Shown here: one piece after another, positions 2,200 to 45,034 of the stretch
Numbering within the stretch: position 1 is the first letter of the stretch
Layout: each line of letters starts with the position of its first letter
Assembly (NCBI RefSeq): GCF_013694245.2
Contig: NZ_CP059322.2
Span: 2,166,001 to 2,230,000, forward strand
DNA: 64,000 nucleotides
Reading direction: 5' to 3'
From: Micromonospora ferruginea
Lineage (GTDB): Bacteria > Actinomycetota > Actinomycetes > Mycobacteriales > Micromonosporaceae
The notes under the pieces: model-generated
Seen by the model: only the letters and a program-made list of their open reading frames with translations
Told to the model about the DNA's origin: nothing
Databases searched by the model: none
Translations under genes and position numbers: made by a program

Positions 2200-3888
2200 T
2201 CAGGCCGGCAGGTCGTCCTCGCCGCGGGTCACCACCGTGTCGCCGAGCACCAGCAGGTCGATCTCCTTGGCCCGGGTGAACGTGTCCACCGCGTCCGTGG
2301 CCGAGTCCACGATCGGGTCCCCGGCCAGGTTGAACGACGTGTTGACCACCGCCGGCACGCCGGTGAGCTGCCGGAACTGCTCGATCAGCGCCCAGTAGCC
2401 GGGGTTCGTGTCGCGGTGCACCGTCTGCGGGCGTGCCGAACCGTCGACGTGCGTCACCGCCGGGATCCGCCGCCGGGCGTCCGGACGCACCGACGCGGCG
2501 GCCAGCATGAACCGGGACGGGTCGTCGAGCCGGCCCTCGATCAGCTCGTGCGCGTGCTCGGCGAGCATGCTCGGCGCCACCGGCCGCCACATCTCCCGCC
2601 CCTTGAGCACGTTGAGCCGCTCCAGGCTGCGCCGGTCGCGCGGGTCGGCGAGCAGGCTGCGGGCGCCCAACGCGCGCTGCCCGATCTCCCCGCGACCCCG
2701 GGCCCAGCCGACGATGCGTCCCCGGGCGATCTCCCCGGCCACGAACCGGGCCAGCGCGTCGTCGCCGAGACGGCGGTGCGCCAGGCCGGCCCGGGCGGCG
2801 GCCGACTCCCCCGCCTCCGTGGTCACCGGCCGACCCCAGTACGCGTGGTCGATGCGGGTCGGCGTGAACGGTCCGCACTCGCGCGCGGAGACCAGCGCGG
2901 CGCCCAGCGACACCCCGGCGTCGGTGGGCACCGGCGGCACGTAGACCCGGTCGAACAGCCCGCTGCGCACCAGCACCCCGATCATGGTGCAGTTCATCGC
3001 CACGCCCCCGGCCAGCGCCAGCACCGGCGTGTCCACCCGCCGGCGCAGCTCGGTGGCCAGCGACAGCACCGCCTCCTCCAGCCCCTGCTGGACGGTGGCG
3101 GCGAAGTCCGCGTACGCGATCGGCTCCTCGGCCTCGCGCGGCGCGTACGGGAAGAACGCCCCGAAGCCCGGCCGTAGCGACTCGGCCACCGCCGGGTAGT
3201 AGGCCATCAGCGGGCCGAGCGACGCGATCCGGCGGGCCGGCACCTGCGCGGCGGGCGCCCGGACCAGCTCGTATCCGCCCGGCACGGCCCGCACCGGCGC
3301 GCCCGACGCCGCCCGCCCGTACGCGGCGAGGCCCATCAGCTTGCCGGTGCCCCAGTAGCCCAGTCCGGCCCACTCGGCGGCGGCGTTGTAGTAGAAGCCC
3401 AGCGACTCCTCGACCGGCCACTCCCGCAGGATCTCCACCTCGCCGTCGGCGAAGCGGCCGATCGACGTCGACTGGGTCTCGCCGGCGCCGTCGACCACCA
3501 GCACCGCGGCCTCGTCGGTGTCGCAACTGAACGCGGCGCTGGCGGCGTGCGCGACGTGGTGCGGCACCCAGCGCACCGCCGGCATGACCAGGTCCTCCTG
3601 GTCGGGGAAGAGCATCGCGCGCAGCCCGTCGGTGGTGAACCGGCGGTTGCGGCCCAGCGGGATCTGCCGGAAGTCCCAGCCGATCGCCAGGGTGTCCACG
3701 TCCGCCGGCCCGATGCCGGCCATCGCCAGGCAGGCGGCGACCGCCTCCGCGGGCGGCTGCCCCACCGCGTGCTTGCGCCGGCTGACCCGCTCCTGCTCGA
3801 CCAGCGCGCACAGCGCGCCGTCGCGCAGCAGCGCCGCGCTGGAGTCGTGGAAGCCGATGTTCACCCCGAGTACGTAGCGTGCCGACAT
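2200..3888 (-). CDS. Carbamoyltransferase (NodU/CmcH/TobZ family)
   Basis: A 562-residue O-carbamoyltransferase, which transfers a carbamoyl group from carbamoyl phosphate, through carbamoyl-adenylate, to a hydroxyl of a small molecule. The N-terminal Kae1-like domain begins [19 protein letters not shown] with conserved His14 and Asp15, and has the metal-site stretch HHVAHAASA. The YrdC-like C-terminal part includes [20 protein letters not shown] and [14 protein letters not shown]. Start ATG 3888 has GAAGGGAG upstream. It is the last gene of the leftward NRPS operon, 28 bp after the 2Fe-2S subunit. It predicts a carbamate on the final product, which is not a feature of pyochelin or yersiniabactin. 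Confidence 0.9.
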
Positions 3889-3916
3889 CGTCGGTCTCCC
3901 TTCCGGTTTCTGGCGT

Positions 3917-4416
<500 letters not shown>

Positions 4417-4420
<4 letters not shown>

Positions 4421-5238
4421 GGTCGCTCCCGGTTGCGGTCGGCCAGCGCCCGGGCCACCAGGACCCGGCTCAGGTGCCGGCGGTAGTCGGCGGACCCCCG
4501 TACGTCGTCGGGGGGCGCGCAGCCCTGGTCCGCGTACGCCGCCGCGTCGGCCGGTCCGGCGCCCTCGGCGAGCGCCGCCTCCACGGCCGTGGCGCGCCGG
4601 ATCGTGTCGTCCATGCCGGCCAGCGCGACCCGGCCGTCGGCCACCGCGACGGCGACCAGCGACCACTCCAGCGCCGGCCGGGCGAACGTGCGGTAGCTCC
4701 ACCGGCGCGGGCCGGGTAGCGGCACCCGCACCTCGGTGAGCAGCTCGTCGGGCCGGCACACGGTGACGCCCGGCGCGACGGCCAGCTCGGCGACGGGCAC
4801 CAGCCGGGCACCGTCCACGCTGGTCAGGACCGCGGTGGCGGCCAGCGCCACCAGGGCGGTCGGCACGTCCGCGGCCGGGTCGGCCTGGGCCAGCGCGCCG
4901 CCGACCGTGCCGGCGTGGCGCACCTGCGGGTCGCCGACCGACGCGGCGGCCGCCGCCAGGATCGGGGCGTGCCGCTCGACCAGCGGGTCGGTGAGCAGCA
5001 GGTGGTAGCGGGTCAGCGCGCCGATCGCGAGGTGGTCGCCGCGCGCCGCCACGTACGACAGCTCGGTGAGGCGGCCCAGGTCCAGCAGCGTGTCGACGGC
5101 GTCGCGGCGCAGCTTCAGCGCCGGCAGCAGGGACTGCCCGCCGGCCAGCGGCCGCAGCAGGTCACCGTGCTCGCGCCGCAGCCGCAGCGCCTCGGTCAGG
5201 TCGCCGGCGCGGTGGTAGCGCAGGTGGGCCGGGATCAC
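4417..5238 (-). CDS. FAD-binding subunit of xanthine dehydrogenase/CO dehydrogenase family
   Basis: A 273-residue CoxM/XdhB-like medium subunit, near the usual 270-290 residues. The two FAD pyrophosphate-binding loops are visible: [13 protein letters not shown] near the N-terminus and [16 protein letters not shown] in the middle, followed by a CoxM C-terminal domain. The GTG start at 5238 overlaps the stop of the type II thioesterase gene, and its own stop overlaps the ATG of the 2Fe-2S gene, so the three are translationally coupled. With the 2Fe-2S protein it would make a flavin/iron-sulfur redox pair lacking the molybdenum subunit. It may oxidise a heterocycle, act as an electron carrier, or recruit a large subunit encoded elsewhere. 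Confidence 0.9.
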
Positions 5239-6008
5239 GGGCCGGCCGCCGACCAGGTGGGCACCGGGCTGCGGTGCGTGGCGCGCAGGATCGTCTCGAC
5301 GAGCCGGTGCCGGTGGGCGAGCAGATAGAAGTGCCCGCCTCCGAAGGTGTGCAGGGTGAACCGGCCCCGGGTCCGGGCCGCCCAGGCGTTCGCCTCGTCC
5401 ACGGTCACCTCGGGGTCGTCCGCGCCGATGCAGGCCAGCACCGGCGCGCGCAACGGCACCGGTGGCTCCGGCCGCCAGGTCTCGGCGATCCGGTAGTCGG
5501 CGCGCAGCACCGGCAGGGCCACCGCCTTCACCCCGTCGTGTTCCAGCGTCTCCCGGCCGGTCCCGCCGAGGCGGCCGGTCTCGGCCCAGAGCGTGTCGTC
5601 GTCGGCCAGGTGCACGCGGGTGTCGCGCAGCCGGTCCGGGGCCGGGCGGCCGGAGACCACCAGCGCCCGCAGCCCACCGCCCGGCCCGTCCAGGCGGCGG
5701 GCCGTCTCGTACGCCACCGACGCGCCGAGGCTGTGCCCGAAAAGGACCACCGGGACGTCGCCGGGCAGCGCGCGCAGCGCGGACGCGACACCGGCGGCCA
5801 GGCTCGGCAGGTCGGCGGCGAACGGCTCCCCGGTGCGGTCCATCCGGCCCGGGTACTGCACGGCGTGCAGCTCGACGTCGTCGGGCAGGTGCGCCGCCCA
5901 GGGCCGGTAGAACGCCGCGTTGCCGCCGGCGTGCGGGAAGCAGACCAGGCGCAGCGCCGGCCAGCGCAGCGGCCGGGGGCAGCGCAGCCAGGTCCGGGCG
6001 GCGGTCAC
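5235..6008 (-). CDS. Type II thioesterase (alpha/beta hydrolase)
   Basis: A 257-residue stand-alone thioesterase of the kind that clears mis-loaded or stalled carrier proteins in NRPS and PKS systems. It carries the N-terminal CFPHAGGNAAFYRPWA motif, the nucleophile elbow GHSLG with Ser93, a conserved Asp in CIGADDPEVT and the catalytic His in the GGGHFYL motif. The GTG start at 6008 overlaps the stop of the imine reductase. Because the TE-like domain at the end of the second NRPS lacks its serine, this intact enzyme could also take part in product release, though editing is the usual role. Confidence 0.92.
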   Translation of the reverse strand: MTAARTWLRCPRPLRWPALRLVCFPHAGGNAAFYRPWAAHLPDDVELHAVQYPGRMDRTGEPFAADLPSLAAGVASALRALPGDVPVVLFGHSLGASVAYETARRLDGPGGGLRALVVSGRPAPDRLRDTRVHLADDDTLWAETGRLGGTGRETLEHDGVKAVALPVLRADYRIAETWRPEPPVPLRAPVLACIGADDPEVTVDEANAWAARTRGRFTLHTFGGGHFYLLAHRHRLVETILRATHRSPVPTWSAAGP

Positions 6009-7168
6009 CGGCGCGCCCCGATCGGCTCCGGCTCGACCGCATGGGCGGCGGCGTCGGCCAGCTCGGCCACGTCGGCGGGCAGCAGCATCCGCGGCGGCGT
6101 GGAGTGCAGCAGCTCGGGCGGTCCGAGCCGGGCGGTGACGTCCTGCCACAGCCGGCACAGGGTCAGGTGGTACTGGCCGTGGCGGACCGGCTTCTCGCCG
6201 GCCTGCGCCGCGCGGTGCAGCTCGCCCAGCGCGTGTCCCACGCCGGCCGGCCAGACCCGCTCGAACACCTCGCGGTAGCTGGGCGCGGTCGGCTCGTCCA
6301 GCGGCTGCGCGCTCGGCACGTCCAGGTGGTCCGGCTCGTCGTCGCCGGAGCCGGCGAAGTGCGGGCGGCCCACCCCCCGGTCCTGCACCTGCTGCGGGAA
6401 GTCCGGCCGGGGGCTCCAGACGGTCGGCCCGTGCGTGCCGAGCAGGGTCAGGTTGCCGGCCTCGGTGCCGATGGTGACCCGGTGCAGCAGGTGCGCGTAG
6501 TTGTCCGGGTCCGCCGGGTCCATCTGGTTCTGCACCCGCAGGGTCAGCGGCACCCCGGCGAGCACCCCGTCGACGCTGCGGAACGGCACGTCCACCGGGG
6601 ACAGCCGGCGCACCTGCTCGGGCAGCTCCGCCGGGGCGGCCAGCCCCCACGGGCGGACCCCGCCGAGCGCCTGGCCGAGGATGTCCAGCAGCGCGTACGC
6701 GACCTGGAAGCCGCACGCCGCGTCGACGTAGCGGGCCGGCCGGCGGGCCAGCAGGGCGCGTGCCGCCGCGACGAACCGACGCACCGGCGCGGTGTGCACG
6801 TAGAACGAGTTGAGGTGGTAGACCACCCCGGCCCGCCCGGCGGTGCGCAGGCACTCGACCAGCTCGTCGTGGTGCAGCGGATGCTCCTGCAGCACGTGCA
6901 TGCCGCGTTCCATCAGCGCGCGGGCCACCTCCCCGCCGGGCCCGCCGAGCAGGCCGCCGCGGATCACCACACAGGCCAGCGTCACGTCCTCGGGCACCTG
7001 CGACACGTCGGTGAACAGCGGCACCCCGTAGTGCCGGGCGCAGGCCACCGAGCGGGCACTGCCGCCGGCCAGGATCCCGGCCAGCTCGAACGGGAAGTCG
7101 GGCTGCCGGAACGCCTGCAGGTAGACCTGGCCGAACTTGGTACCGGCGACGAGCACCCTCGGTCTCAC
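6005..7168 (-). CDS. Thiazolinyl imine reductase (PchG/Irp3-like, Gfo/Idh/MocA fold)
   Basis: A 387-residue oxidoreductase. The N-terminal Rossmann segment RVLVAGTKFGQVYLQAF is typical of thiazolinyl imide reductases of pyochelin and yersiniabactin pathways, and the EHPLHHDE and YHLNSFYVHT stretches match their C-terminal half. The family reduces a carrier-bound thiazoline C=N bond to a thiazolidine with NADPH. The GTG start at 7168 overlaps the preceding stop and has GGAGGGGGTGG upstream. Its presence implies that at least one of the rings made by the Cy domains is reduced, which would free its nitrogen for the methyltransferase embedded in the second NRPS. Confidence 0.88.
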   Translation of the reverse strand: MRPRVLVAGTKFGQVYLQAFRQPDFPFELAGILAGGSARSVACARHYGVPLFTDVSQVPEDVTLACVVIRGGLLGGPGGEVARALMERGMHVLQEHPLHHDELVECLRTAGRAGVVYHLNSFYVHTAPVRRFVAAARALLARRPARYVDAACGFQVAYALLDILGQALGGVRPWGLAAPAELPEQVRRLSPVDVPFRSVDGVLAGVPLTLRVQNQMDPADPDNYAHLLHRVTIGTEAGNLTLLGTHGPTVWSPRPDFPQQVQDRGVGRPHFAGSGDDEPDHLDVPSAQPLDEPTAPSYREVFERVWPAGVGHALGELHRAAQAGEKPVRHGQYHLTLCRLWQDVTARLGPPELLHSTPPRMLLPADVAELADAAAHAVEPEPIGARR

Positions 7169-8268: not shown

Positions 8269-8269
8269 G

Positions 8270-11200
8270 TCAGCCCCGCCCGGCGATCGCGTCGGCCCAG
8301 CCGGCCGGGTCGTCGGGCACCCGGGTCACGGTCAGCTCGCCGAGGCACACCTCGCCCCACCAGGCCACACCTTCCGGGTCCGGCTCGCCCGGGCAGAGCA
8401 GCGTCACGTCCCCGGCGTACGGCGAGCTGGCGTACGCGTCGCCGGGGACCGGGTCGGCGACCGCCAGCCCGGTCACGTCCACCCCGGACTCGGTGAGCTG
8501 CCGGGCCAGCTCCAGCGCCAGCGCACCGGCCTCGCCCCGGCCCACCACGGTCAGCGGAGCCCCGGACCGGTGCCCGGCCAGCTCGGCGGCGTAGTCGGCG
8601 GCGAGCCGCTGCACCAGCGGCGCCGGGTCCAGGCCGGTGTAGCGGTGCAGCGCGCCGTCGGCCACCCCCCACACCGCGCCGTCAACGGCCAGCCCGGCCG
8701 GCAGGGCGGCGTACCCGTCGAGTCGGCCGCTGCCGTCGTGCACCAGCAGGTAGCGGGGCGGGCCGTCGCCCGCGAGCGGGGTCACCTCCACCGCGCCGGC
8801 GTCCGGCTCGTCGTCCGGGGCGGCGGGTCCGGCCGTGGCGGCGAGCCGTTCGGCGAGCGCGCCGACGGTGGGGTGTTCCAGGATGGTGCGCAGCAGCTCG
8901 TCGAAGAAGACCCCGGACGCGGCCGGCACCCGCTCGGCGAGCTGGCCGGCGAGCTTCGCGGCGAGCAGCGAATCCCCGCCGAGGGCGAAGAAGTCGGCGT
9001 CGCGGCCGACCCGCTCGACCCGCAGCACGTCCGCCCAGACGGCGGCGATCTCCTCCTCCAGCCCGGCGCTCGGCGCGGCGCCGCCGGTCTCCGGACCGGC
9101 CGTGCCGGCCGCCAACAACCGGCGCACCTCGGCGCGGTCCAGCTTGCCGTTGGCGGTCCGGGGCAGCTCGTCGACCACCTGCAACACGCTCGGCGCCATG
9201 TAGTCGGGCAGCCGCTCGGCCAGGTGCGCCCGCAGCTCGTCGGGCACCACCCGCCGCCGGTCCGCCTTTACCCGGGCCGCGACGATCCGCATCCCGAGCC
9301 CGGCCATCGGGTCCTCGGGCGCGGGCAGGTCGAGCACCGGCGCGGCGCCCGCGCCGGTGAGCAGGCCCCGCCACTCGTCCGCGTCGAGGAACGTCCGGTC
9401 GGTGCCGCGCCGCAGGTCGGCGAAGTCCCCCAGCTCGTCGTCGAGGCGCACCAGCAGCTCCAGCGACGTCATGATCTGGTAGTGCTCCCGGGTCATCTCC
9501 AGCAGCACCAGGTGCCCGCCCGGGGCGAGGACGCCGCGCAGCCGGGCCAGCGTCGCCGGCACGTCCCGGGTGGCGTGCAGCACGTCGCCGGCGATCACCA
9601 GGTCGACGCTGTTCGGGGCGAGACCCTGCCCGGCCGGGTCGGCGTCCAGGTCCAGCGTGGCGAAGCGCAGGCCGGGCCGGTCGCCGAAGCGCTGCCGGCC
9701 GGCCTCGACGAAGAACCCGGACAGGTCGGTGTAGAGGTAGTCGACGTCCAGCCCGTCGAGCGCGTCGAGGACGGCCGCCGTGGTGCCGCCCGAACCGGCG
9801 CCGACCTCGACGATCCGCACCGGTCCGGGCAGTCGTTCGGCGAGCGCCCGCACCGTCGACGCGGCGACCGCGTTGGCCCAGCGGTTGAACAGGGCGCCGG
9901 CGTAGAGGTTGTCCGACACGGCCAGCTCACCGGCCGGGAAGAGCAGCGCCAGCGGGTCCTCGTCGTCGCGCAGCAGCGCCGGCAGCGCCGCGGCGCTGCC
10001 CTGGAAGTAGCGCACCAGCTCCGGCGCCTCCCCCACCTCCGCCGCCCGCCGGGCCGCCGCGTCCCACGCCCGCGCCGCCGGGGACAGCGTCTCCACCAGC
10101 CGGTACGCGTCGTCGTCGCGTCGCAGCACGCCGGCGTCGGTGAGCGCCCGCAGCCAGCGCCGCAGCAGCCGGCGGTGCCGGGGCGCGACGCCGGTGCCCG
10201 CGTACACCTCGGCCAGCGGGTGCGGGCGGTCGTCCAGGAACAGGCCGGCCGCGCGCAGCGTGTCCAGCATGGCGGCCAGGCCGAGGCGGTCCAGGTCGTG
10301 CAGGTAGTCCGCGTACCCGTCCAGGTCGGTGCCGGCGACCACGGCGGCGCCGGCGGCGGTGGGGCCGGCCGGGTCGACGGTGGTGGCCGGGCCGGGTTCG
10401 ACCGCGGCGGGCTGGACCACGGCGGCCAGCCTGCGCTCCAACGGGCGGTCCCCGTCCACCACGGCGACCGCCGCGCCGACCGCCGGATGGGCGAGCAGCG
10501 CGGCCTCCACCTCGGCCAGCTCGATCCGGTGCCCGCGCACCTTGACCTGGTGGTCCTCCCGGCCGAGGAACTCGATCACCCCGTCGGGCCGGTAGCGGCC
10601 CAGGTCGCCGGTGCGGTACAGCCGCTGCCCGGTGGCCGGGTCGGTGACGAACCGTTCGGCGGTGCGCTCCGGGTCGCCGAGGTAGCCCGACGCCAGCCCG
10701 GCGCCGCCGATGTACAGCTCGCCGGTCACCCAGTCCGGGCGGTCCCGCAGGCCGCCGTCGCGCACGTGCCAGCTCTGGTTGGCCAGCGGCACGCCGTACG
10801 GGATGCTGCGCCACGCCGGGTCGACCGCGCCGACCGGATGGATGATCGACCAGATCGCCGCCTCGGTCGCGCCGCCCAGGCTGACCACGGCCAGGCCGGG
10901 CACCAGGGCGCGGATCTCGTCCGGCAGGGTGACCGGGATCCAGTCGCCGCTGAGCAGCGCCAGCCGCAGCGACGGCGTGCGCACCGTCGGCGCGGCCGAC
11001 AGATAGTCGGCGAGCATCTGCATCTGCGCCGGCACCGAGTTCCAGAGCGTCACCTCGTGGCCGGTGACCAGGTCCGCCCAGTGGGTCGGGTCGCCGCGCC
11101 GCTCGGGCGCGGGCAGCACCAGGGCGGCGCCCACGGCGGGCGGGCCGAACAGGTCGTAGACGGACAGGTCGAACCCGAGGCCGGCCAGGCCGAGGATCCG

Positions 11201-19827: not shown

Positions 19828-19838
19828 GTCCACTCCGG

Positions 19839-22193: not shown

Positions 22194-22212
22194 CGTCGCG
22201 AACCGGGCGGGC

Positions 22213-23739: not shown

Positions 23740-23763
23740 GGGCACAGCGTAGCCGAAGATCCG

Positions 23764-23785: not shown

Positions 23786-23817
23786 GCTATCCGCGATTCT
23801 TCATTAGACTCTCCGGC

Positions 23818-25268: not shown

Positions 25269-25292
25269 GCTGCGGTCCTCTCCGGACGGGCG

Positions 25293-26459
25293 TCAGTACG
25301 ACCTGGGCAGGCCGAGCACCCGCTCGGCGATCACGTTGCGCAGCACCTGCGAGGTGCCGCCCTCGATGGTGTTGGCGCGACTGCGCAGCATCTCGCGCCG
25401 CCAGTAGCGGTCCCACCCGTCCGGCCGGCCGTCGGCGGTGAGCAGCACGGCCAGCGCGGTCAGCCGCTGGTGCGCCTGCGACCAGCGCAGCTTCACCACC
25501 GACGTCTCCGGGCCGGGCGTGCCGGTGCGCCGCAGCTCGGCCAGGGCACGCCGGTTGGTCCAGCGCAGCCCCTCCAGCTCGACGTAGCGGGCGGCGATCT
25601 GGTCGCGGACCAGCGGGTCGGTGTCACGGCCGCGGGCCCGCGCGGTCGCCACCAGCCGGCGGAACGCCACCTCCAACCGGGCGGTGAGCGTGAAGCCGAA
25701 GGTGCCGCGCTCGTGGGCCAGCGTGGTCATCGCCACCCGCCAGCCGTCGCCGATCTCGCCGACCACCGCGTCGAGCGGCACCCGCACCTCGTCGAACTCG
25801 ATCTCGGCGAACTCGGCCTCGCCGGTCATCTGCCGGATCGGGCGCACCGTCACCCCGGGCGTGCGCAGGTCGACCAGCAGGCACGACAGGCCACGGTGGC
25901 GGGTCGCGTCCGGGTCGGTGCGGGCGAGCAGCAGGCAGTGGTCGGCCAGGTGCGCGTAGGAGGACCAGACCTTGCGCCCGGTCACCACCAGCTCGTCGCC
26001 GTCGCGGCGGGCGAGCGTCCGCACGGCGGACAGGTCGCTGCCGGCCTCCGGCTCGGAGAAGCCCTGGCAGAAGATGATCTCGCCGGTGAGGATCCGGGGC
26101 AGGTACCAGGCCCGCTGGGCCGGTGAGCCGCAGGCGATGACGGTGGGACCGACCATGCCCAGGCCGATCACGCCGATGTGCTCGCCGGCCTCGGCACGGG
26201 CGCTCTCCTCCAGGTAGATCGCCTGGTGCACCGGGGACAGGCCGCGCCCGCCGTACTCCACCGGCCAGGTGAGCCCGGCGTAGCCGGCCTCGTGCAGCGC
26301 GGCGCTGAAGGACCGCACCGCGTCCACGTCGTCCCACCGTCCCCGCGCCGGCGCGCCGGCCGTCCCGGTGGTCACCGGCACGGACCGGGCCAGCCAGTCA
26401 CGCAGCCCGGCGCGGAACGCGGCCTCCTCGGCGCTGTCACGCAGATCCATGCGCCGCAT
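25293..26459 (-). CDS. Acyl-CoA dehydrogenase
   Basis: A 388-residue acyl-CoA dehydrogenase with FAD-binding QGFSEPEAGSDLSAVRT, the KVWSSYAHLADHCLLLART strand and the C-terminal RANTIEGGTSQVLRNVIAERVLGLP, which contains the likely catalytic Glu. The start may be ATG 26459 or ATG 26450 (MDLRDSAEEA); neither has a clear ribosome binding site. It forms an operon with the second dehydrogenase at 24192 and is divergent from a hotdog thioesterase. It probably desaturates an acyl precursor for the NRPS starter. Confidence 0.9.
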   Translation of the reverse strand: MRRMDLRDSAEEAAFRAGLRDWLARSVPVTTGTAGAPARGRWDDVDAVRSFSAALHEAGYAGLTWPVEYGGRGLSPVHQAIYLEESARAEAGEHIGVIGLGMVGPTVIACGSPAQRAWYLPRILTGEIIFCQGFSEPEAGSDLSAVRTLARRDGDELVVTGRKVWSSYAHLADHCLLLARTDPDATRHRGLSCLLVDLRTPGVTVRPIRQMTGEAEFAEIEFDEVRVPLDAVVGEIGDGWRVAMTTLAHERGTFGFTLTARLEVAFRRLVATARARGRDTDPLVRDQIAARYVELEGLRWTNRRALAELRRTGTPGPETSVVKLRWSQAHQRLTALAVLLTADGRPDGWDRYWRREMLRSRANTIEGGTSQVLRNVIAERVLGLPRSY

Positions 26460-26527
26460 CGTACTCGTATCTGCTTTTGCTGTGCAGTATCTTGTGTCGA
26501 CGGATGGTGCGTGGAGGGGGAGGTCCG
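26460..26527. promoter_or_regulatory. Divergent promoter gap with CGTATCTG and GTATCTTG
   Basis: This AT-rich gap between the dehydrogenase and the thioesterase holds CGTATCTG at 26466-26473 and GTATCTTG at 26487-26494. The pair closely parallels the arrangement upstream of the NRPS operon at 20833-20862, which suggests a common regulator or promoter type. Confidence 0.5.
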
Positions 26528-27367
26528 ATGGCCAGTCTCGCGGACGACGCCGCGGTCGAGCGGACCGCGCCCGGTCACTACCGGGCCAGCCTGGCCGAGG
26601 ACTGGTCGGTGTGGGGACCCAACGGCGGCTACCTGGCCGCGGTCGCGCTGCGCGCCGCCGGCGACGCCGCCGGCGGGATGCTGCCGGTGAGCCTGAGCTG
26701 CCAGTTCCTCGCCCCGGCCCGCTACGGCGAGGCGGAGCTCACGGTGGAGCGGGTGCACGGCACCCGGCGCGCCGCCGCGTTCCACGTCACGCTGCGCCAG
26801 CGCAACCGCACCGTGCTCGCCGCGCACGTGTGGACCGTCGCGGACGGTCTGGTCGGCCCGGAGCGCCGCTGGATGCCGGCGCCGGAGCTGCCCGGGCCCG
26901 ACGAGCTGCCGGCGCTCGTCGACCTGATGCGCCGCGACGGCCTGCCGGTGCTGCCGATCTGGGAACGCTGCTACGAGGTACGCCTGTCCGGCTGGCCGGC
27001 CGGCGGCTGGTCACCGCAACGCGACGGCGTGCCGACCGTACGCGGCTGGCTGCGGCTGCACGAACCGCTGCCGGCCGGCGCCGACCCGTGGCTGGCCGCC
27101 GCCCGGCTGGTGTTCGCCGTCGACGTGGTGCAGTTCCCGGCCATCGTGCAGGCATTCGAGCAGACCACGTTCATGGCCCCGAGCATGGATCTCTACGTGG
27201 GCTTCCAGGCCGGCGGCGACGCCGGCGAGTGGCTGCTGGTCGAGGGCGAGGCCGCCTCGGCAAACGGCGGCACCCTGGGTGCCCGCGCCCGGGTCTGGTC
27301 CGACGGCGGGCATCTGCTGGCCACCGGCGGCCAGCAGATGCTCTACCGGATGGCCAGCCCGGTCTGA
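26528..27367 (+). CDS. Acyl-CoA thioesterase (double hotdog, TesB/4HBT_3-like)
   Basis: A 279-residue protein with two hotdog repeats: an N-terminal SVWGPNGGYLAAVALRAAGDAAG and a second half with TTFMAPSMDLYVGFQ and ANGGTLGARARVWSDGG. Such proteins hydrolyse acyl-CoA thioesters. ATG 26528 is set by GGAGGGGGAGG upstream. It is divergent from the dehydrogenase pair and shares its promoter gap, so it probably handles the same acyl chain, releasing or editing an acyl-CoA on the way to the starter unit. Confidence 0.82.
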   Translation: MASLADDAAVERTAPGHYRASLAEDWSVWGPNGGYLAAVALRAAGDAAGGMLPVSLSCQFLAPARYGEAELTVERVHGTRRAAAFHVTLRQRNRTVLAAHVWTVADGLVGPERRWMPAPELPGPDELPALVDLMRRDGLPVLPIWERCYEVRLSGWPAGGWSPQRDGVPTVRGWLRLHEPLPAGADPWLAAARLVFAVDVVQFPAIVQAFEQTTFMAPSMDLYVGFQAGGDAGEWLLVEGEAASANGGTLGARARVWSDGGHLLATGGQQMLYRMASPV

Positions 27368-27383
27368 CCGGCCCGCCCGGTCA
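27365..27383. terminator. Short hairpin covering both convergent stop codons
   Basis: TGACCGG (27365-27371) pairs with CCGGTCA (27377-27383) around a five-base loop. The stop codons of the thioesterase and of the convergent ABC permease form the two feet of the stem. Confidence 0.5.
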
Positions 27384-28145
27384 GGCGGCGGTGCGGCGGC
27401 CGAAGCGGCGCACCGCCACCAGCAGGCAGATCCCGCCCAGCCCCAGCACCCAGGCGAGGGTCTGCAGCACCGGCGCCAGGACCGGCCCGCCCGAGGAGAG
27501 CCCGACCAACGCCTCGGTGGCCACCGAGAACGGGTTGGCCCGCACCAACGGCTGCACCACCGACGGGAACGCCGACACCGGCACGAACCCCGACGAGAAG
27601 ATGAACAGCAGCGTCGCCGGGCCGGTCAGCGACGGCGGCAACGACTCCTCGTCGCCGGGCCCCGAGCCGCGCCACAGCGCGATCGCCGCCCACATCACCC
27701 CGAACAGCGCGAGCACCGCGAAGAAACCCACCACGGCCACCGCGCCCTGCCGGAACCGGAACCCGAGCAGCAGCGCCACCGCGGTGGTGAGCACGCCGAT
27801 CAGCACGATGCGCAGCACGTCACCGGCGACCCGCCCGGCCAGCAGCGCCCCCGGCCGCACCGGCATCGCCCGCAGCCGGTCGACCAGCCCGCCCTTGAGG
27901 TCGCGCAGGAAACCGACCGCGCTCGACGGCGACCCGAACGCGGCGGTGGAGAGCACCACCAGCGGCGCGAGCCGCTCCAGGTAGTGCTGGCGGTCGCCGT
28001 CGCCGACGATGCGGCCGAAGACCGCGTACTGGGTGAGCAGGAGCAGCACCGGGAACGCGAACGAGTAGATCAGCGCCGGCGGGGCGCGGAAGAACCGGCG
28101 CAGGTTGCGCCCGGCGAACAGCGACGCCTGGGTGACAGTGCTCAT
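27381..28145 (-). CDS. ABC-2 type transporter permease (DrrB-like)
   Basis: A 254-residue integral membrane protein with about six hydrophobic segments and the ABC-2 features LKGGLVDRLRAMPVRP, SSGFVPVSAFP and VRANPFS. It overlaps the preceding permease gene (ATG within GTGAGCAC next to that stop). With the ATPase at 28912 and the permease at 28142 it forms a daunorubicin-type exporter. It most likely exports the cluster product or gives self-resistance. Confidence 0.9.
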   Translation of the reverse strand: MSTVTQASLFAGRNLRRFFRAPPALIYSFAFPVLLLLTQYAVFGRIVGDGDRQHYLERLAPLVVLSTAAFGSPSSAVGFLRDLKGGLVDRLRAMPVRPGALLAGRVAGDVLRIVLIGVLTTAVALLLGFRFRQGAVAVVGFFAVLALFGVMWAAIALWRGSGPGDEESLPPSLTGPATLLFIFSSGFVPVSAFPSVVQPLVRANPFSVATEALVGLSSGGPVLAPVLQTLAWVLGLGGICLLVAVRRFGRRTAA

Positions 28146-28915
28146 CGGGTCCTCCGGAACGAACGGGCGGCGGCGAAGCCGAACAGCAGCCCCAGCACCA
28201 CCAACCAGACCAGCGCCGGCCAGACCCGCTGGTCGGCGCCCTCGGTGGACAGCGCCCGCAGCGCGTCGACCTGGGCGGAGAACGGCGACACCCGCACCAG
28301 CGGCTGCAACCAGCCCGGGAACGCGTCGACCGGCACGAACGCGGTGGACACCGTGGTCAACACCAGATAGGGCAGGGTGAGCGCGGAGTAGACGTGCTCC
28401 GGGTCACGGGCGCCCAGGCCCAGCGCGGCGCACCCGGCCGCCAGCACGACCGCGAAGCCGACCGCCAGCAGCACGAAACCCACCGCGCCGGCCGCGCCCG
28501 CGGTGAACCGGAAACCGACCACGACGGCCGCGACGAGGATCACCGCCACCGCGACGGCGGCCCGCGCCGCGTCCACCACCAGCCGGGCGGCGGGCACCAC
28601 GGCGGCGCCCATCGGCAGCGTGCGGTAGCGGGCGATCAGCCCGCTGCGGGCGTCACCGGCGACCATGTAGCACGCCGACATGGCCACCAGCACGGTGGTC
28701 TGCACGACGATCGCCGGCGGCAGGAACTGCTCGTAGGCGATGCCGTAGTCGGACATCAACCGGTGGAACACCACCATGAAGCCGGCGAAGAACGTCAGCG
28801 GGAACACCACGGTCAGGCCGACCGACCGGCCGGCGCGCGCCTGGCGCAGGTTGCGCGCGGCCAGCACGGCGAACTGCCGCGCCGGCCCGGCGGCCGGCGG
28901 GCTCGCGACGGTCAC
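28142..28915 (-). CDS. ABC-2 type transporter permease
   Basis: A 257-residue membrane protein and paralogue of the next permease, with VVFPLTFFAGFMVVFHRLM, SGLIARYRTLPMGAAVVPAARL and TAFVPVDAFPGWLQPLVRVSPFS. The GTG start at 28915 overlaps the ATPase stop. Two different permeases for one ATPase suggest a heterodimeric channel. Confidence 0.9.
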   Translation of the reverse strand: MTVASPPAAGPARQFAVLAARNLRQARAGRSVGLTVVFPLTFFAGFMVVFHRLMSDYGIAYEQFLPPAIVVQTTVLVAMSACYMVAGDARSGLIARYRTLPMGAAVVPAARLVVDAARAAVAVAVILVAAVVVGFRFTAGAAGAVGFVLLAVGFAVVLAAGCAALGLGARDPEHVYSALTLPYLVLTTVSTAFVPVDAFPGWLQPLVRVSPFSAQVDALRALSTEGADQRVWPALVWLVVLGLLFGFAAARSFRRTR

Positions 28916-29868
28916 CGCCCGGCTCCCGCCACGTCGGGCACGCCGGCGGCCGACCCGGTCAGCGACAGGAACACCTCGTCCAGGGTGGGCCGGCGGACCG
29001 TCACGTCGTCGGCCTCCACGCCGGCGGCCTCCAACCGGCGCACCACCTCGGTCAGCGTGCCCGCCCCGGCGGCGACGCGCAGCACGTCGTCGTCCTCGGT
29101 CAGCTCCGGGAACGCCTCGCGCAGCCGCGCGGCGGCCGTCTCCCGGGCCCGCGGATCCTCCACCCGCACCTCGCAGACCGTGCCGCCGAGACGGCCCTTC
29201 AGCTCGTCCGGGGTGCCCTCGGCGACGACCCGGCCGTGGTCGACCAGCAGCACCCGGTCGGCGAGCTGGTCCGCCTCCTCCAGGTACTGCGTGGTCAGCA
29301 GCACGGTGGTGCCGTCGGCGCGCAACTGCCGGACCACCTCCCACAACGCCCGCCGGCTGCGCGGGTCGAGGCCGGTGGTCGGCTCGTCGAGGAACAGCAC
29401 CGGCCGGTCGACCACCAGGCTCGCGGCCAGGTCGGCGCGGCGGCGCAGGCCACCGGAGTAGGTGCGGACCGCCTTGCCGGCCACCTCCCCCAGGTCGAAG
29501 CGCTCCACCAGCTCGTCGGCACGCGTGGCGGCGGCCCGCCGGTCCAGGCCGAGCAGGCGGCCGAACAGCACCAGGTTCTCCCGGCCGGTGAGCAGCTCGT
29601 CGAGCGCCGCGAACTGGCCGGTGACGGCGATGCTGCGGCGCACCTGGGCGGCCTGGTCGACCACGTCGAAGCCGGCGACGCGGGCGCTGCCCGAATCCGG
29701 CTTCAGCAGTGTGGTGAGACAGTGGATCGTGGTGGTCTTGCCGGCGCCGTTCGGGCCGAGCAGGCCGACCACCTCGCCGGCGGCCACCTCGAATCCGACC
29801 CCGTCGACCGCGGTCGTCGCGCCGAACGACCGGCGCAGATCGTGGACCTGGATCATCTGCTCTGACAT
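28912..29868 (-). CDS. ABC transporter ATP-binding protein, drug-resistance (DrrA) type
   Basis: A 318-residue ATPase with Walker A GPNGAGKT (residues 38-45), Q-loop VTGQFAALDELLTGRENL, signature TYSGGLRRR, Walker B VLFLDEPTTGLDP and a DrrA-type C-terminal domain ending in RRPTLDEVFLSLTG. It is the first gene of a three-gene export operon. ATG 29868 lies behind a GGGTGAGGGTGG stretch. The operon promoter carries the CAGATAC word shared with other cluster promoters, linking export to the pathway. Confidence 0.93.
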   Translation of the reverse strand: MSEQMIQVHDLRRSFGATTAVDGVGFEVAAGEVVGLLGPNGAGKTTTIHCLTTLLKPDSGSARVAGFDVVDQAAQVRRSIAVTGQFAALDELLTGRENLVLFGRLLGLDRRAAATRADELVERFDLGEVAGKAVRTYSGGLRRRADLAASLVVDRPVLFLDEPTTGLDPRSRRALWEVVRQLRADGTTVLLTTQYLEEADQLADRVLLVDHGRVVAEGTPDELKGRLGGTVCEVRVEDPRARETAAARLREAFPELTEDDDVLRVAAGAGTLTEVVRRLEAAGVEADDVTVRRPTLDEVFLSLTGSAAGVPDVAGAGR

Positions 29869-29946
29869 CGCACCACCCTCACCCCAGGAGTCCCCGGCAC
29901 CATATCAACGCTCGTATGTGGAAAACCAGATACAAGAACGACTCAG
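29869..29946 (-). promoter_or_regulatory. Promoter of the exporter operon with near-perfect inverted repeat
   Basis: TATGTGG (29915-29921) and CCAGATA (29926-29932) form a 7 bp inverted repeat with one mismatch around AAAA. The right arm continues as CCAGATACAAG, matching the word in other cluster gaps. It lies between the PlsX-like gene and the ATPase. Confidence 0.5.
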
Positions 29947-30987
29947 TCATCCGTCGACGGCGATGCGCCGCACCGCCCGGCGTCGACGCGACGAGGCCGC
30001 GAAGGCGACGCCGGTCCGGTCGACCACCCCGGAGCGCACGCACTCGACCGCGATGTCCACCCCGGCCGCCACGTCGGCCGCGCCGGCCGCGCCGTGGCAG
30101 ACCACGCACACCCCGCGTACGCCCAGCAGCGCGCCACCCGCCTCGGCGGCCAGCCCCCGGCGCACCGCCGCGGTGACCCGCCGCTCCCGGTCCCGGGCCA
30201 GCGCGCCGATCGGCGAGAACGCCCGTACCGCCGCCAGCGCCAGCCCCACGGTGGCGTCCAGCGTGCGCTCGTACATCTTCAACGCCACGTCGCCGGTGAA
30301 CCCGTCGGTCACCGCCACGTCCACCCGGCCGCCCAGCACGTCGTACGCCTCGATCTGGCCCACGTAGCCGGGCATCGCGGCCAGCAGCAGGTGCGCGTCG
30401 CGGCGCACCGGGCCGCCCTTGACCGACTCGTGCCCGTTGGACAGCAGGCCGATCCGGGGCCGGTCGACGCCGAGGCGGCAGCGGGCGTACTCGGCGCCGA
30501 GCACCGCGAACTCGACCAGCCACTCCGGCTGCGCGGTCGCCGTCGCGCCGATGTCGAGCAGCACGGTCGGCCCGGCGTCCGGCACCGGCAGCACCGTCGC
30601 CAGCGCCGGGTTGGTCACCCCGGGCACCCGTCCCAGCCGGGCCGCCGCCGCCAGCACGGCGGCACCGGTGTTGCCCGGGGTCACCATGGCGTCGGCCCGG
30701 CCCGCCGCCACCTCCGCCGCGGCGACCAGCAGCGACGAGCGCCGCTTGGCGTACGTGGCGGCCACCGGGTCGTCGGCCATGCCCACCACGTCCGGGGCGT
30801 CGAGCAGGCGTACTCCGGGTGGTGGCACGCCGCCGGGCAGCAGCGCCCGGACGCGCTCGCGCGGGCCGACCAGCACCACGTCCGCGCTCTCGGCGGCGGC
30901 CAGCGCCCCGGCGACCACCGGTTGCGGCCCGAGGTCCGCGCCCGCGACGTCGACGGCGATCCGGGGTCGACGGCCGGCGGCGTTCAC
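29947..30987 (-). CDS. PlsX-like phosphate acyltransferase
   Basis: A 346-residue protein of the PlsX family, which converts acyl-ACP plus phosphate to acyl-phosphate. Visible signatures are VDVAGADLGPQPVVAGAL, VTPGNTGAAVLAAAARLGRVPGV, the GLLSNGHESVKGG segment and the C-terminal VAVTDGFTGDVALKMYERTLDATVG. The N-terminal MGGD-type motif is altered to VAGADLGP. The GTG at 30987 overlaps the stop of the large dehydrogenase gene. A second PlsX in a secondary-metabolite locus is unusual; it may supply an acyl-phosphate for a starter or acylation step. The housekeeping PlsX normally lies with rpmF and acpP, which are absent here. Confidence 0.85.
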   Translation of the reverse strand: MNAAGRRPRIAVDVAGADLGPQPVVAGALAAAESADVVLVGPRERVRALLPGGVPPPGVRLLDAPDVVGMADDPVAATYAKRRSSLLVAAAEVAAGRADAMVTPGNTGAAVLAAAARLGRVPGVTNPALATVLPVPDAGPTVLLDIGATATAQPEWLVEFAVLGAEYARCRLGVDRPRIGLLSNGHESVKGGPVRRDAHLLLAAMPGYVGQIEAYDVLGGRVDVAVTDGFTGDVALKMYERTLDATVGLALAAVRAFSPIGALARDRERRVTAAVRRGLAAEAGGALLGVRGVCVVCHGAAGAADVAAGVDIAVECVRSGVVDRTGVAFAASSRRRRAVRRIAVDG

Positions 30988-32870
30988 CGCGCCGCCCCGG
31001 CGGCCGACCGGTCCGCCGCACCGGCGGTGCCCGGCGCGGAACCCGGACGCCGCGTCGGCCGGTCCGGTGTGGAAGCAGGCGCGTCGGGCACGGCGGCCGG
31101 ACCGGGGCGCGACGGGCCGGCGGGCGTCGAGGTCAGCCAGCGCCGCAGCGCCGCGCGCGCCGGCGCCCGTTCGCCCGCGAACGCCGCGCGCACATCGTCC
31201 GTCCCCGCCGGATCGTCCGTCTCGACCGCCGTGGACGGGTCGTCGGTCCCGGGCCGGCCGTCGGCCGCCAGGTCGGCGGCGAGCTCGTCGACCTGGGCGG
31301 CGAGCCCGACGCCACGCCAGCCGAGCGCGTAGCCGAGCGCCGCCTCGTCGACCTCCCCGGCCCGGCCGGGCAGGCCGAGCAGCGCCCGGGCGCACGGGTC
31401 GACCAGCTCGACGGCGGCCAGCAGCGCCTCCGCCTCCGCGAGGATCCCGGCACCGGCGAAGCGCCAGGCCTGGTCCGCCGCCCAGCGTCCGCTGCGACGG
31501 GCGCGACCGACCACGTCGAACAGCCGCCGCAGGAGCGTCGCCAGCGCGCCCACCGCCGGGCGGTCGGTCGCCGCGGCGAGCGTCGCGGCCCGCAGCGCCG
31601 GGTTCGGCGCGAACGGCCGCACCCGCAGCCGGGCGACGTCCACCAGGGGTTGCGGCGCGCTCGCGTACGCCTCGGCGAGCACCCGGTAGCCGTCGTCGCC
31701 CCGGGCCGGGCCGGCGGCGAAGCGCTCCAATCGCCACTGCAACTGGTCGAGCAGGATGTGGCTGGTGCCGTCGAAGACGCCGTAGAGCAGCACGTCGCGC
31801 ACCTGGGCGGCGTAGCCGAACTCCTCCACCAGGGCCCGGGAGCCGAGCACCGCGCGGCCCTCGGTGACGGCCTCCTCGGCCAACCGGCAGCAGGCGTACT
31901 TGGCCACCGCGGTGGCGTGCGCGGCGGCCGGCCCGAGTGTGTTGATCAGGAAGGTCGCCTTGACCGCGGCGGCCGCGACCAGCACGTCGAGGGCGGCGGC
32001 CCGGAACAGGTGCTCCGCTATCGCGCCCAGGTGCACGATCGGCTCGCCGTAGACGTCACGCTCGCGGGCGTAGCGCACCGCCTGGGCCAGCGCCCCGCTC
32101 GCGGCGCCCGAGGCCAGCGAGCCGATGCCGCCCCGGGACAGCGCTAGGGTCAGCCGCAGGACCGCCGCGCCGTCACCGGGCGCGCCGACCGGCTGCGCCG
32201 CGGTGCCGTCGAGGCGTACGCCGGAGATGTCCGCGGCGGCGGTGGGCAGCGTGCGCCAGGCGGGCAGGGCGTGGACCGTGCCGTCCCGCTCGGCGAGGAA
32301 CAGCCCGAGGTCGTCGCCGCCGTCGACGCGGGCCAGCGTCACCAGCAGGTCGTGTCGCCGGCCGCCGTTGATCAGGTGCTTCTCTCCGGTCAGCCGCCAA
32401 CCGTCGCCGTCCGGCACCGCCCGCGTGGCGATGCGGGCCAGGTTGCTGCCGTGCGCCAGCTCGGTGAGCAGCATGGCGGCGGAGCCGCCGGCCCGCAGTA
32501 CGGCGCCGACCCGGTCGCGTTGTGGCGGGGTGCCGGCGATGTAGAGCGGCAGCAGCGCCAGCGCGTTGACCCCGAGCGTGATCGCCAGGCTGCCGCTGTG
32601 TCGCGCGAGGACGGCGTTGAGCGCGTTGACGTGCACGGCGGTGGCGGTGGCCGGGTCGTACACCGCGGCGACGCCGAGGGACCGCAGCGCGGCCAGCACG
32701 TCGTCCGGGGGTGTACGGCTCGCGTCGGCCTCGGCCAGGAGCCGTCCGGCCTCGGGCCGGTCCAGGTGCTCGGCCAGCGCCGGCAGCGGAGCCAGCCGGT
32801 CCAGGGGCAGCGGGCTGAGCCGCCGCCACGCGGGCGCTTCGTCTGGTGTCACCCGGCACCTCACCGCCAT
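30984..32870 (-). CDS. Long acyl-CoA dehydrogenase-family flavoprotein
   Basis: A 628-residue protein whose first 400 residues show the acyl-CoA dehydrogenase fold: MLLTELAHGSNLARIATRA, GWRLTGEKHLINGG, LTLALSRGGIGSLASGAASGALAQAVRYARERDVYGEPI and FDGTSHILLDQLQWRLERF. The following 150 residues form an extra helical domain, and the last 60 are proline/alanine-rich. Starts possible are ATG 32870 or GTG 32852, the latter with GAGG at good spacing. It is coupled to the PlsX-like gene by a GTGA overlap and divergent from the MocA-like gene. It may desaturate or oxidise an acyl or aminoacyl group held on a carrier. Confidence 0.82.
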   Translation of the reverse strand: MAVRCRVTPDEAPAWRRLSPLPLDRLAPLPALAEHLDRPEAGRLLAEADASRTPPDDVLAALRSLGVAAVYDPATATAVHVNALNAVLARHSGSLAITLGVNALALLPLYIAGTPPQRDRVGAVLRAGGSAAMLLTELAHGSNLARIATRAVPDGDGWRLTGEKHLINGGRRHDLLVTLARVDGGDDLGLFLAERDGTVHALPAWRTLPTAAADISGVRLDGTAAQPVGAPGDGAAVLRLTLALSRGGIGSLASGAASGALAQAVRYARERDVYGEPIVHLGAIAEHLFRAAALDVLVAAAAVKATFLINTLGPAAAHATAVAKYACCRLAEEAVTEGRAVLGSRALVEEFGYAAQVRDVLLYGVFDGTSHILLDQLQWRLERFAAGPARGDDGYRVLAEAYASAPQPLVDVARLRVRPFAPNPALRAATLAAATDRPAVGALATLLRRLFDVVGRARRSGRWAADQAWRFAGAGILAEAEALLAAVELVDPCARALLGLPGRAGEVDEAALGYALGWRGVGLAAQVDELAADLAADGRPGTDDPSTAVETDDPAGTDDVRAAFAGERAPARAALRRWLTSTPAGPSRPGPAAVPDAPASTPDRPTRRPGSAPGTAGAADRSAAGAAR

Positions 32871-45032: not shown

Positions 45033-45034
45033 AG

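What the first reader, a model, noticed from the sequence alone, without database searches (positions are those of the whole stretch)
2200..32870. Thiazoline-type NRPS cluster with an unusual set of partners
The order carrier-Cy-A-PCP-Cy-A-PCP then Cy-A(MT)-PCP with a PchG-like imine reductase is pyochelin/yersiniabactin/coelibactin logic. Here it is joined with a carbamoyltransferase, a di-iron oxygenase, an NtaA-type monooxygenase, a GMC protein, three acyl-CoA dehydrogenases, a PlsX-like acyltransferase, a free C domain and a DrrAB-type exporter. No salicylate synthase or aryl-AMP ligase is in the window. The product is probably a tris-heterocycle bearing a carbamate and an aryl or acyl starter, and may not be a known siderophore.
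Basis: partly seen in the sequence, partly recalled or inferred. Interest (0 to 1): 0.78.

Follow-up and report, generated by a model that had tools for sequence, protein, structure and literature searches.

The report
Type II PKS-fed coelibactin-like gene cluster
A chromosome of Micromonospora type carries a roughly 65-kb gene cluster that joins a coelibactin/sorangibactin-type heterocycle assembly line to a set of polyketide genes that probably build its starter acid; it looks like an uncharacterised sister branch of the metal-binding coelibactin family that lacks the family's zinc switch and its usual release enzyme.

Summary
The NRPS pair (ArCP-Cy-A-PCP-Cy-A-PCP, then Cy-A-MT-PCP-TE-like) with its two reductases and a thioesterase is the coelibactin/sorangibactin core, not a pyochelin/yersiniabactin one. 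The 'missing' aryl-AMP ligase lies 5.3-6.9 kb left of the window. Further left lies a type II PKS operon (two ketosynthase pairs, one AmcF/AmcG-like). That operon, two P450s and a FAAL/ACP pair recur near the NRPS in 6-7 of 7 wide relatives. PKS-linked NRPSs form one side of a 100-supported branch (20 of 38 rows, unrooted) and differ from the others: ligase residue 236 is Ala in 11 of 11 (Phe in 20 of 20); the TE nucleophile is gone in 19 of 19 readable rows (Cys in 16 of 16); a Zur-like box before the NRPS is found in 1 of 19 loci (16 of 17 coelibactin-type). The A1 code is not the Cys code, so the first ring is probably an oxazoline. Carbamoyltransferase, Mo-hydroxylase, GMC, Drr exporter and PlsX reach 40% identity only in the closest species. 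Product unknown. Verdict: new variant of a known kind, probably not a zincophore.

The parts
1..548 (-). NtaA/DmoA-type flavin monooxygenase, C-terminal part (whole gene -825..548)
608..1678 (+). O-methyltransferase (PF00891)
   Evidence: at least 40% in 5 of 7 wide relatives
1689..2165 (+). glyoxalase/VOC-fold protein, named from sequence (SrbJ of sorangibactin is VOC-fold)
   Evidence: no NCBIfam match, Pfam not run; 55-64% in 4 of 7 wide relatives
2200..3888 (-). NodU/CmcH-type carbamoyltransferase, last gene of the probable NRPS operon
   Evidence: PF16861, PF02543; 3 of 3 close relatives, 0 of 7 wide relatives at 40%; 35-39% copies in 2 of 7
3917..4420 (-). [2Fe-2S] subunit of a xanthine-dehydrogenase-family Mo-hydroxylase
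4417..5238 (-). FAD subunit of the same Mo-hydroxylase (Mo subunit at -11548..-9305)
5235..6008 (-). stand-alone thioesterase with intact GHSLG
   Evidence: motif GHS[LM]G in 30 of 30 homologues listed
6005..7156 (-). thiazolinyl imine reductase (Irp3/PchG/SrbI type)
   Evidence: TIGR01761 347.5 bits
7165..8268 (-). saccharopine-reductase-fold oxidoreductase (SrbE-like), possible second imine reductase
   Evidence: AlphaFold pLDDT 91; best PDB match carboxyspermidine dehydrogenase, E 3.6e-15
8270..13315 (-). NRPS 2: TubC docking-Cy3-A3(MT)-PCP3-TE-like domain without nucleophile (GRGEAG)
13312..19821 (-). NRPS 1: ArCP-Cy1-A1-PCP1-Cy2-A2-PCP2
19839..20735 (-). ferritin-like di-metal protein (AurF-like), first gene of the probable NRPS operon
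   Evidence: PF11583, 35 bits, cut-off 29.6; EARH motifs at 104 and 184; weak R2-like fold matches
20887..22173 (+). free-standing condensation domain, HHLVTD
22213..23739 (-). GMC oxidoreductase, MftG-like (337 bits, cut-off 387)
   Evidence: 0 of 7 wide relatives
23818..24213 (+). glyoxalase/VOC-fold protein
24192..26459 (-). acyl-CoA dehydrogenase pair (small- and large-subunit like)
   Evidence: each at least 40% in 4 of 7 wide relatives
26528..27367 (+). TesB-like acyl-CoA thioesterase
27381..29868 (-). DrrABC-type exporter (two permeases, one ATPase)
   Evidence: 0 of 7 wide relatives at 40% (the ATPase finds 31-39% ABC proteins in 6 of 7)
29947..30987 (-). PlsX-like protein
   Evidence: TIGR00182 226 bits, just under cut-off 243
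30984..32852 (-). acyl-CoA dehydrogenase-like, 622 aa
   Evidence: 0 of 7 wide relatives
32957..34661 (+). MobA-like NTP transferase and XdhC/CoxI, possible maturation factors of the Mo-hydroxylase; inferred right edge
   Evidence: collinearity with M. globbae and M. lupini breaks here, XdhC not found in the M. lupini region

Best explanation
This is one hybrid biosynthetic cluster, about window -32.3 kb to +32.9 or +34.7 kb (genome about 2,133,700-2,200,700). Its core is a coelibactin/sorangibactin-type NRPS. Inferred mechanism: the left operon builds an acid on the ACP (-19751..-19497) with two ketosynthase pairs. A KS/CLF-like pair (-20960..-19755 and -22009..-20957), a ketoreductase and two hot-dog dehydratase-like proteins extend the chain; an AmcF/AmcG-like pair (-23099..-22095 and -24133..-23096) adds a last unit and closes a ring. 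P450s, an HsaA-like oxygenase and O-methyltransferases tailor the ring. The acid is released by thioesterases, adenylated by the remodelled EntE-like ligase (-6892..-5300) and loaded on the ArCP. Module 1 adds a Ser/Thr-type residue (oxazoline). Modules 2 and 3 add Cys and cyclise to thiazolines, the last one methylated; the Irp3-type and the saccharopine-reductase-type enzymes reduce thiazolines. Because the terminal TE domain lacks its nucleophile and no fourth module like that of the relatives is found here, release must use another enzyme: the stand-alone thioesterase or the free C domain. The lineage-specific carbamoyltransferase, Mo-hydroxylase and PlsX/ACAD genes then decorate the product and Drr exports it. 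Shown by sequence: gene content, synteny, clade, pocket and TE changes, Zur-box contrast. Inferred: substrate identities, order of steps, product, function.
For: Domain order and partners match the description of SrbC/SrbD/SrbE/SrbI/SrbK of sorangibactin (PMC10127202). EntE-like ligase beside the window, 575 bits. PKS operon annotated; AmcF-like 168 bits, AmcG-like 37 bits, AmcE-like 69.5 bits. Cys-His-His motifs intact in both catalytic KSs of query and 10 of 10 relatives; both His motifs missing in the partner proteins (10 of 10 and 9 of 9 found). PKS genes g41-g50 (-24.1..-15.4 kb) recur at 40% or more in 6-7 of 7 wide relatives. An AmcF-like KS at 58% or more is in 13 of 15 PKS-type genomes and 0 of 17 coelibactin-type genomes. 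PKS-type NRPSs are one side of a branch, SH-aLRT 100, 20 of 38 rows. Ligase pocket Ala236 in 11/11 against Phe in 20/20. TE nucleophile absent in 19/19 readable PKS-type rows, Cys in 16/16 readable coelibactin-type rows. Zur-like box 1/19 against 16/17. No chorismate enzyme of the genome reaches the salicylate- or isochorismate-synthase cut-off.
Against: No product is known and no expression data exist. That the PKS acid is the starter, and not a second acyl chain loaded by the FAAL/ACP pair, rests on co-occurrence and the ligase pocket only. AmcF/AmcG/AmcE matches are all below their curated cut-offs (168/325, 37/80, 69.5/140), and FabZ scores slightly higher (77) than AmcE for that protein; the AmcG-like protein of the query keeps a Cys. 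The ligase was found in 11 of 13 PKS-type regions: Actinokineospora (L029) has none within the 100 kb read (a ligase-family gene lies on the same contig about 67 kb from its NRPS), the partial MAG region none either. PKS-type L031 has only a 41% KS match and the 2.3-Mb MAG (L026) none. The branch is unrooted: outgroup rows were long and gave an open fork. A1 specificity is read against recalled codes and varies in the family (L034 A1 is Cys-like).
Confidence: 0.6

Rival explanations
1. The starter is an ordinary chorismate-derived hydroxybenzoate, and the PKS operon makes a separate acyl chain. The FAAL and its ACP load that chain and the free C domain attaches it to the NRPS product.
For: FAAL and ACP are found in 7 of 7 wide relatives and the free C domain in 5 of 7. 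Asn235 of the ligase, present in all DHB/salicylate-type rows aligned, is kept. Acyl-CoA dehydrogenases and thioesterases are present.
Against: No salicylate or isochorismate synthase above cut-off in the genome. The ligase pocket differs from every non-PKS relative compared, 11/11 against 20/20. An HsaA-like oxygenase (below cut-off) and three O-methyltransferases fit ring tailoring.
Confidence: 0.25
2. It is a zincophore or siderophore pathway like coelibactin; the extra genes only modify the metal ligand.
For: Same core as coelibactin and sorangibactin. Published annotations name a relative's reductase under siderophores (M. lupini, PMC4182475) or call a relative a putative zincophore pathway (S. 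tropica, PMC3430247).
Against: Zur-like box in front of the NRPS in 16/17 coelibactin-type loci but 1/19 PKS-type loci and not in the query. The motif with 2 mismatches sits about 20 bp before a znuA-like gene (named from sequence) of this genome, one of three such sites; with at most 1 mismatch the genome has none, so the local motif is looser. No IdeR box within 5 mismatches in the 71-kb region (also none in 15 of 16 control loci). No siderophore-uptake gene among the genes annotated.
Confidence: 0.2
3. Two or three independent clusters happen to be adjacent.
For: Several transcription units on both strands; many genes at the right end occur only in close relatives.
Against: Collinear in 3 of 3 close relatives. 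PKS, P450s, FAAL and NRPS recur together, rearranged, within 87-100 kb in 7 of 7 wide relatives from Micromonosporaceae and Pseudonocardiaceae, the ligase in 6.
Confidence: 0.08

Closest known systems
Sorangibactin (srb) cluster, Sorangiineae MSr11367 (PMC10127202)
   Same: Seven-domain plus five-domain NRPS pair, stand-alone aryl ligase, saccharopine-dehydrogenase-like enzyme, thiazolinyl imine reductase, P450, VOC-fold protein (from the paper's text)
   Different: srb has a salicylate synthase and an essential Cys-nucleophile TE; here neither, but a type II PKS operon, FAAL/ACP, O-methyltransferases, carbamoyltransferase and Mo-hydroxylase. The srb sequences themselves were not compared here.
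Coelibactin cluster of Streptomyces coelicolor (product never isolated; PMC3430247) and the coelibactin-type loci
   Same: Where found in the 17 coelibactin-type loci: NRPS 1 and 2, ligase, both reductases and thioesterase at 38-57% identity
   Different: 16 of 17 carry a Zur-like box, 16 of 16 readable a Cys TE, 16 of 16 compared a Phe236 ligase; none of the 17 genomes holds an AmcF-like KS at 50% or more (best 46%). S. coelicolor itself was not compared.
Salinispora tropica sid4 / putative zincophore region (PMC7888443, PMC3430247) and Micromonospora lupini cluster 6 (MiLup_43546-43581, PMC4182475)
   Same: M. lupini Lupac 08 carries this cluster (L007, collinear); that it is the paper's cluster 6 is inferred from its type and its thiazolinyl reductase, locus tags were not mapped. 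S. fenicalii has NRPS+PKS of this type.
   Different: S. fenicalii has an extra gene read by eye as Cy-A-PCP-TE and, at 40% identity, no carbamoyltransferase, Mo-hydroxylase, Drr or PlsX within 100 kb. The link to S. tropica sid4 was not tested.
Cispentacin/coronafacic acid type II PKS (AmcF-AmcG KS-CYF; PMC10698177)
   Same: A KS with Cys-His-His and a partner without histidine motifs, ACP, AmcE-like hot-dog protein
   Different: A second KS/CLF-like pair, KR and DH are present; matches are below curated cut-offs; no AmcH equivalent was identified

Membership tests
coelibactin/sorangibactin-type NRPS cluster | ArCP-Cy-A-PCP-Cy-A-PCP plus Cy-A-MT-PCP NRPS pair | tested here: met
coelibactin/sorangibactin-type NRPS cluster | trans thiazolinyl imine reductase and saccharopine-dehydrogenase-like protein | tested here: met
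coelibactin/sorangibactin-type NRPS cluster | TE domain with active-site Cys (GYCLGG) | tested here: not met
   GRGEAG in query; 0 of 19 readable PKS-type rows have Ser or Cys, 16 of 16 readable coelibactin-type rows have Cys
coelibactin/sorangibactin-type NRPS cluster | salicylate starter made by salicylate synthase and a salicylate-type ligase | tested here: not met
   no chorismate enzyme over cut-off; ligase pocket Ala236. Substrate itself not tested. Among coelibactin-type loci only 3 of 17 show a chorismate enzyme within the flanks read.
zincophore (Zur-controlled) | Zur box in front of the NRPS | tested here: not met
   query best match 5 mismatches; PKS-type 1/19, coelibactin-type 16/17. 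Motif recalled; control at a znuA-like gene with 2 mismatches, none in the genome with 0-1.
siderophore | IdeR/DmdR box or ferric-siderophore uptake genes | tested here: inconclusive
   no IdeR box within 5 mismatches, but also none in 15 of 16 control loci; uptake genes not seen among the genes annotated, no dedicated search made
pyochelin/yersiniabactin type | salicylate starter, Cys-only modules and active TE | tested here: not met
   A1 code DLFQLGLIH is not the recalled Cys code; TE nucleophile lost; no salicylate synthase over cut-off
AmcF-AmcG (KS-CYF) type II PKS | AmcF- and AmcG-family proteins over curated cut-off | tested here: not met
   168.3 of 325 and 37.2 of 80 bits: relatives, not members
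AmcF-AmcG (KS-CYF) type II PKS | ring closure by the KS-CYF pair | not testable with these tools
   needs in vitro reconstitution

The most novel reading that the evidence does not exclude
A coelibactin-type assembly line in which a ring-forming type II PKS (tandem KS/CLF and AmcF/AmcG-like pairs) has replaced salicylate synthase and makes a substituted 2-hydroxyaryl starter de novo. The same lineage lacks zinc control and a working terminal thioesterase, which would have turned a zincophore pathway into one for a different, exported, carbamoylated molecule.
Probability: 0.35. Interest if true: 0.78.

Novelty: new variant of a known kind. Interest (0 to 1): 0.6.

Why it matters
If right, the sister branch shows how a metal-scavenging pathway is rebuilt: starter supply, release and regulation change together while the heterocycle core stays. 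It gives a concrete prediction (PKS-derived aryl acid, oxazoline first, release without the terminal TE) for an orphan family in Micromonosporaceae and Pseudonocardiaceae: a 68% or better match to the di-iron gene is in 25 of 151 genomes sampled from the window's genus, the window's own included. It also warns that orphan clusters called siderophore-like or zincophore-like in Micromonospora and Salinispora may be neither.

Tried and rejected
Rejected: pyochelin/yersiniabactin membership (A1 code, TE, no salicylate synthase over cut-off). Rejected: 'no aryl-AMP ligase' for the cluster as a whole. Rejected: that the ACAD-fold protein at -1983..-832 is a fatty-acyl dehydrogenase; its best NCBIfam match is HsaA, 171 bits, under the 450 cut-off. 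Considered: an in-trans copy of the fourth module elsewhere in the genome; the Cy part of the Salinispora module finds only the three Cy domains of this cluster and one 28% match.

Led nowhere: Rfam and tRNA scans (none). Literature searches for a product (ten searches of an open-licence library) gave no characterised product of this branch; this is not proof that none is in print. Rooting the NRPS tree failed: of six outgroup loci asked for only two gave a usable row, both on very long branches. The model of the di-iron protein (pLDDT 75) gives only weak R2-like matches. IdeR boxes were not informative, because control loci lack them too. A plasmid search gave only <60% relatives.

Results against my reading, repeated: AmcF/G/E below cut-offs; one Zur-like site with 3 mismatches at 34810, between genes at the right edge; L011 (PKS-type) has a 3-mismatch Zur-like site 114 bp before the NRPS; no Zur motif with 0-1 mismatch in this genome; L029 lacks the ligase within 100 kb. 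The coelibactin-type flanks read were only 10 kb, so PKS absence there rests on the genome-wide KS search. PKS-type labels for the tree were set by me from gene content before the tree; for L026 and L031 no orthologous KS was confirmed, and L009 is a 23-kb contig labelled by its near-identity to M. lupini. Rows dropped: L039 and L043 from both trees, L026 and L031 from the second; only 39 of 76 loci were aligned. The wide-relative table counts a gene only if one matching piece covers half of it (this filter was not applied to the ligase-P450 fusion).


Full report
Observation. Gene models were made by a codon-usage caller and extended 60 kb to the left with DNA of the same single-contig 6.7-Mb genome, where the window is 2,166,001-2,230,000. 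The probable NRPS operon runs from the di-iron gene (20735) down to the carbamoyltransferase (2200): nine genes with gaps of -4 to 28 bp. The carbamoyltransferase, two Mo-hydroxylase subunits, thioesterase and both reductases are therefore probably co-transcribed with the NRPS.

Extent. The block from about -35 kb to +33 kb is collinear in M. humi, M. lupini and M. globbae (one gene of M. humi missed by the caller there is found by tblastn). Left of the window lie, in order towards it: a LuxR-type regulator (named from sequence, -35263); FMN reductase and SsuD-like monooxygenase; an AMP-ligase/P450 fusion; aldolase-II, DsbA-fold, hot-dog thioesterase and alpha/beta-hydrolase proteins; four ketosynthase-fold genes (the one at -20960..-19755 named from its motifs); ACP, two dehydratase-like proteins, FabG; CaiB-type CoA-transferase, thiolase; three P450s; the Mo subunit; a ferredoxin-like protein (named from sequence); two O-methyltransferases; the EntE-like ligase; a methyltransferase, an ACP, a FAAL; an HsaA-like oxygenase and the NtaA-type gene. 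The left edge is inferred: collinearity goes on leftwards with gaps, but the regulator and the gene before it have no match in 7 wide relatives, while the FMN reductase and SsuD-like gene have. On the right, MobA-like and XdhC genes (32957-34661) fit maturation of the Mo-hydroxylase; beyond them collinearity breaks in M. globbae and M. lupini, in the latter partly resuming from about 38.8 kb, and XdhC is not found in the M. lupini region.

What is shared and what is not. In seven 87-100-kb relative regions, the NRPS pair, both reductases, the thioesterase, two P450s, FAAL and its ACP are present at 40% identity or more in 7 of 7, the PKS genes g41-g50 each in 6 or 7. The ligase is present in 6, O-methyltransferases, NtaA-type gene, di-iron gene and free C domain in 5, the acyl-CoA dehydrogenase pair in 4. 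The carbamoyltransferase, Mo-hydroxylase, GMC, Drr, PlsX and 622-aa ACAD genes are in 0 of 7 at 40%, but in 3 of 3 close relatives; two of the seven have 35-39% carbamoyltransferases.

NRPS anatomy. Specificity residues read by alignment: A1 DLFQLGLIH, A2 DLFNVSLIW, A3 DLYNLSLIW. Against recalled codes (Cys DLYNLSLIWK, Thr DFWNIGMVHK), A3 is Cys, A2 near Cys, A1 Thr/Ser-like. In sorangibactin antiSMASH called A1 cysteine but labelled serine was incorporated and the first ring is an oxazole (PMC10127202; abstract and passages, section 7 whole). The Cy motifs are E....D..S, D....D..S and D....D..S. The C-terminal TE-like domain has lost its nucleophile. Five of the seven wide regions have an extra NRPS gene of 1305-1330 aa; the S. 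fenicalii one, read by eye, is Cy-A(Cys)-PCP-TE with GWSLG. This genome has no comparable extra Cy domain.

Two branches. A tree of NRPS 1 (38 rows) separates 20 PKS-linked rows from 18 others with SH-aLRT 100 and a single label change (0 of 500 shuffles as low); the root is not resolved. Besides the PKS itself, three characters follow the split. (i) DhbE position 236 of the ligase: Ala in 11 of 11 (found in 11 of 13 PKS-type regions) against Phe in 20 of 20 (16 coelibactin-type, 4 Nocardia), with Trp/Phe at 329 instead of Val. (ii) TE nucleophile: none in 19 of 19 readable rows (1 gapped) against Cys in 16 of 16 (1 gapped). (iii) Zur-like box within 1.5 kb before NRPS 1: 1 of 19 against 16 of 17; 0 of 40 other loci. 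The motif is usable here only loosely: three sites with 2 mismatches in the genome, one of them about 20 bp before a znuA-like gene followed by an ABC ATPase, both named from sequence; none with 0-1 mismatch. The PKS label itself was checked genome-wide: an AmcF-like KS at 58% or more in 13 of 15 PKS-type genomes tested against 0 of 17, best 46%.

Starter. The genome has three chorismate-binding enzymes at E 0.001: TrpE (820 bits, over cut-off), a PabB-like protein and a fused TrpE/G-like protein; none reaches the salicylate synthase (325) or isochorismate synthase (225) cut-off. The PKS operon offers another source. Its two catalytic KSs keep Cys-His-His in query and 10 of 10 relatives; the two partner proteins lack both His motifs in query and in 10 of 10 and 9 of 9 relatives where found. 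AmcG is described as lacking functional motifs; with AmcF it adds one C2 unit and closes a ring (PMC10698177; passages, section 9 whole). The matches to AmcF, AmcG and AmcE are below cut-offs, so I call them relatives only. An HsaA-like oxygenase and three O-methyltransferases fit a hydroxylated, methoxylated ring. That the PKS acid is the starter is inference.

Reductases. The saccharopine-type protein models well (pLDDT 91) and its nearest solved folds are carboxyspermidine dehydrogenases, L-lysine dehydrogenase and saccharopine reductases, the first and last imine-reducing enzymes by general knowledge. A second thiazoline reduction, as the tandem thiazolidines of sorangibactin would need, is a reasonable but untested role.

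In print. M. lupini cluster 6 'NRPS+PKS' (MiLup_43546-43581) is listed as conserved in Verrucosispora maris and S. tropica, and the reductase MiLup_43551, inside that range, is described under siderophores (PMC4182475, section 27 read). S. tropica has a putative zincophore pathway with two P450s (PMC3430247, passages), and its sid3/sid4 are listed as orphan NRPS clusters (PMC7888443, passages). So the cluster family has been seen before but, in what I could search, not characterised.

Noticed in passing
L014/G007 tile (L128-L132, about 32.2-36 kb) and L029/G013 tile (L110-L114, about 12.2-16.2 kb): A deeper branch of the family carries two carbamoyltransferase genes (35-39% to the window's) around a FAAL-type ACP gene, next to PKS genes; the arrangement differs from the window's.
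   Followed up: no
G008:C22:129622 and G016:C75:47023: Two genomes hold a second AmcF-like KS at 60-61% on another contig, so a second related PKS locus may exist.
   Followed up: no
window 34810: A Zur-like site with 3 mismatches lies just right of the XdhC gene; probably chance or belongs to the next gene.
   Followed up: partly
genome C1 1.07-1.16, 1.30-1.38, 2.81-2.83 and 3.44-3.47 Mb: Several further large NRPS regions, one with a 5466-aa frame.
   Followed up: no
window 42969-47465: GH42 beta-galactosidase and divergent GH31 glycosidase, outside the cluster.
   Followed up: no
-31219..-30092 and -31770..-31216 (outside window): An SsuD-like alkanesulfonate-monooxygenase relative (427 bits, under the 510 cut-off) is in 7 of 7 wide relatives and an FMN reductase in 5 of 7; role in a sulfur-rich product unclear.
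   Followed up: partly
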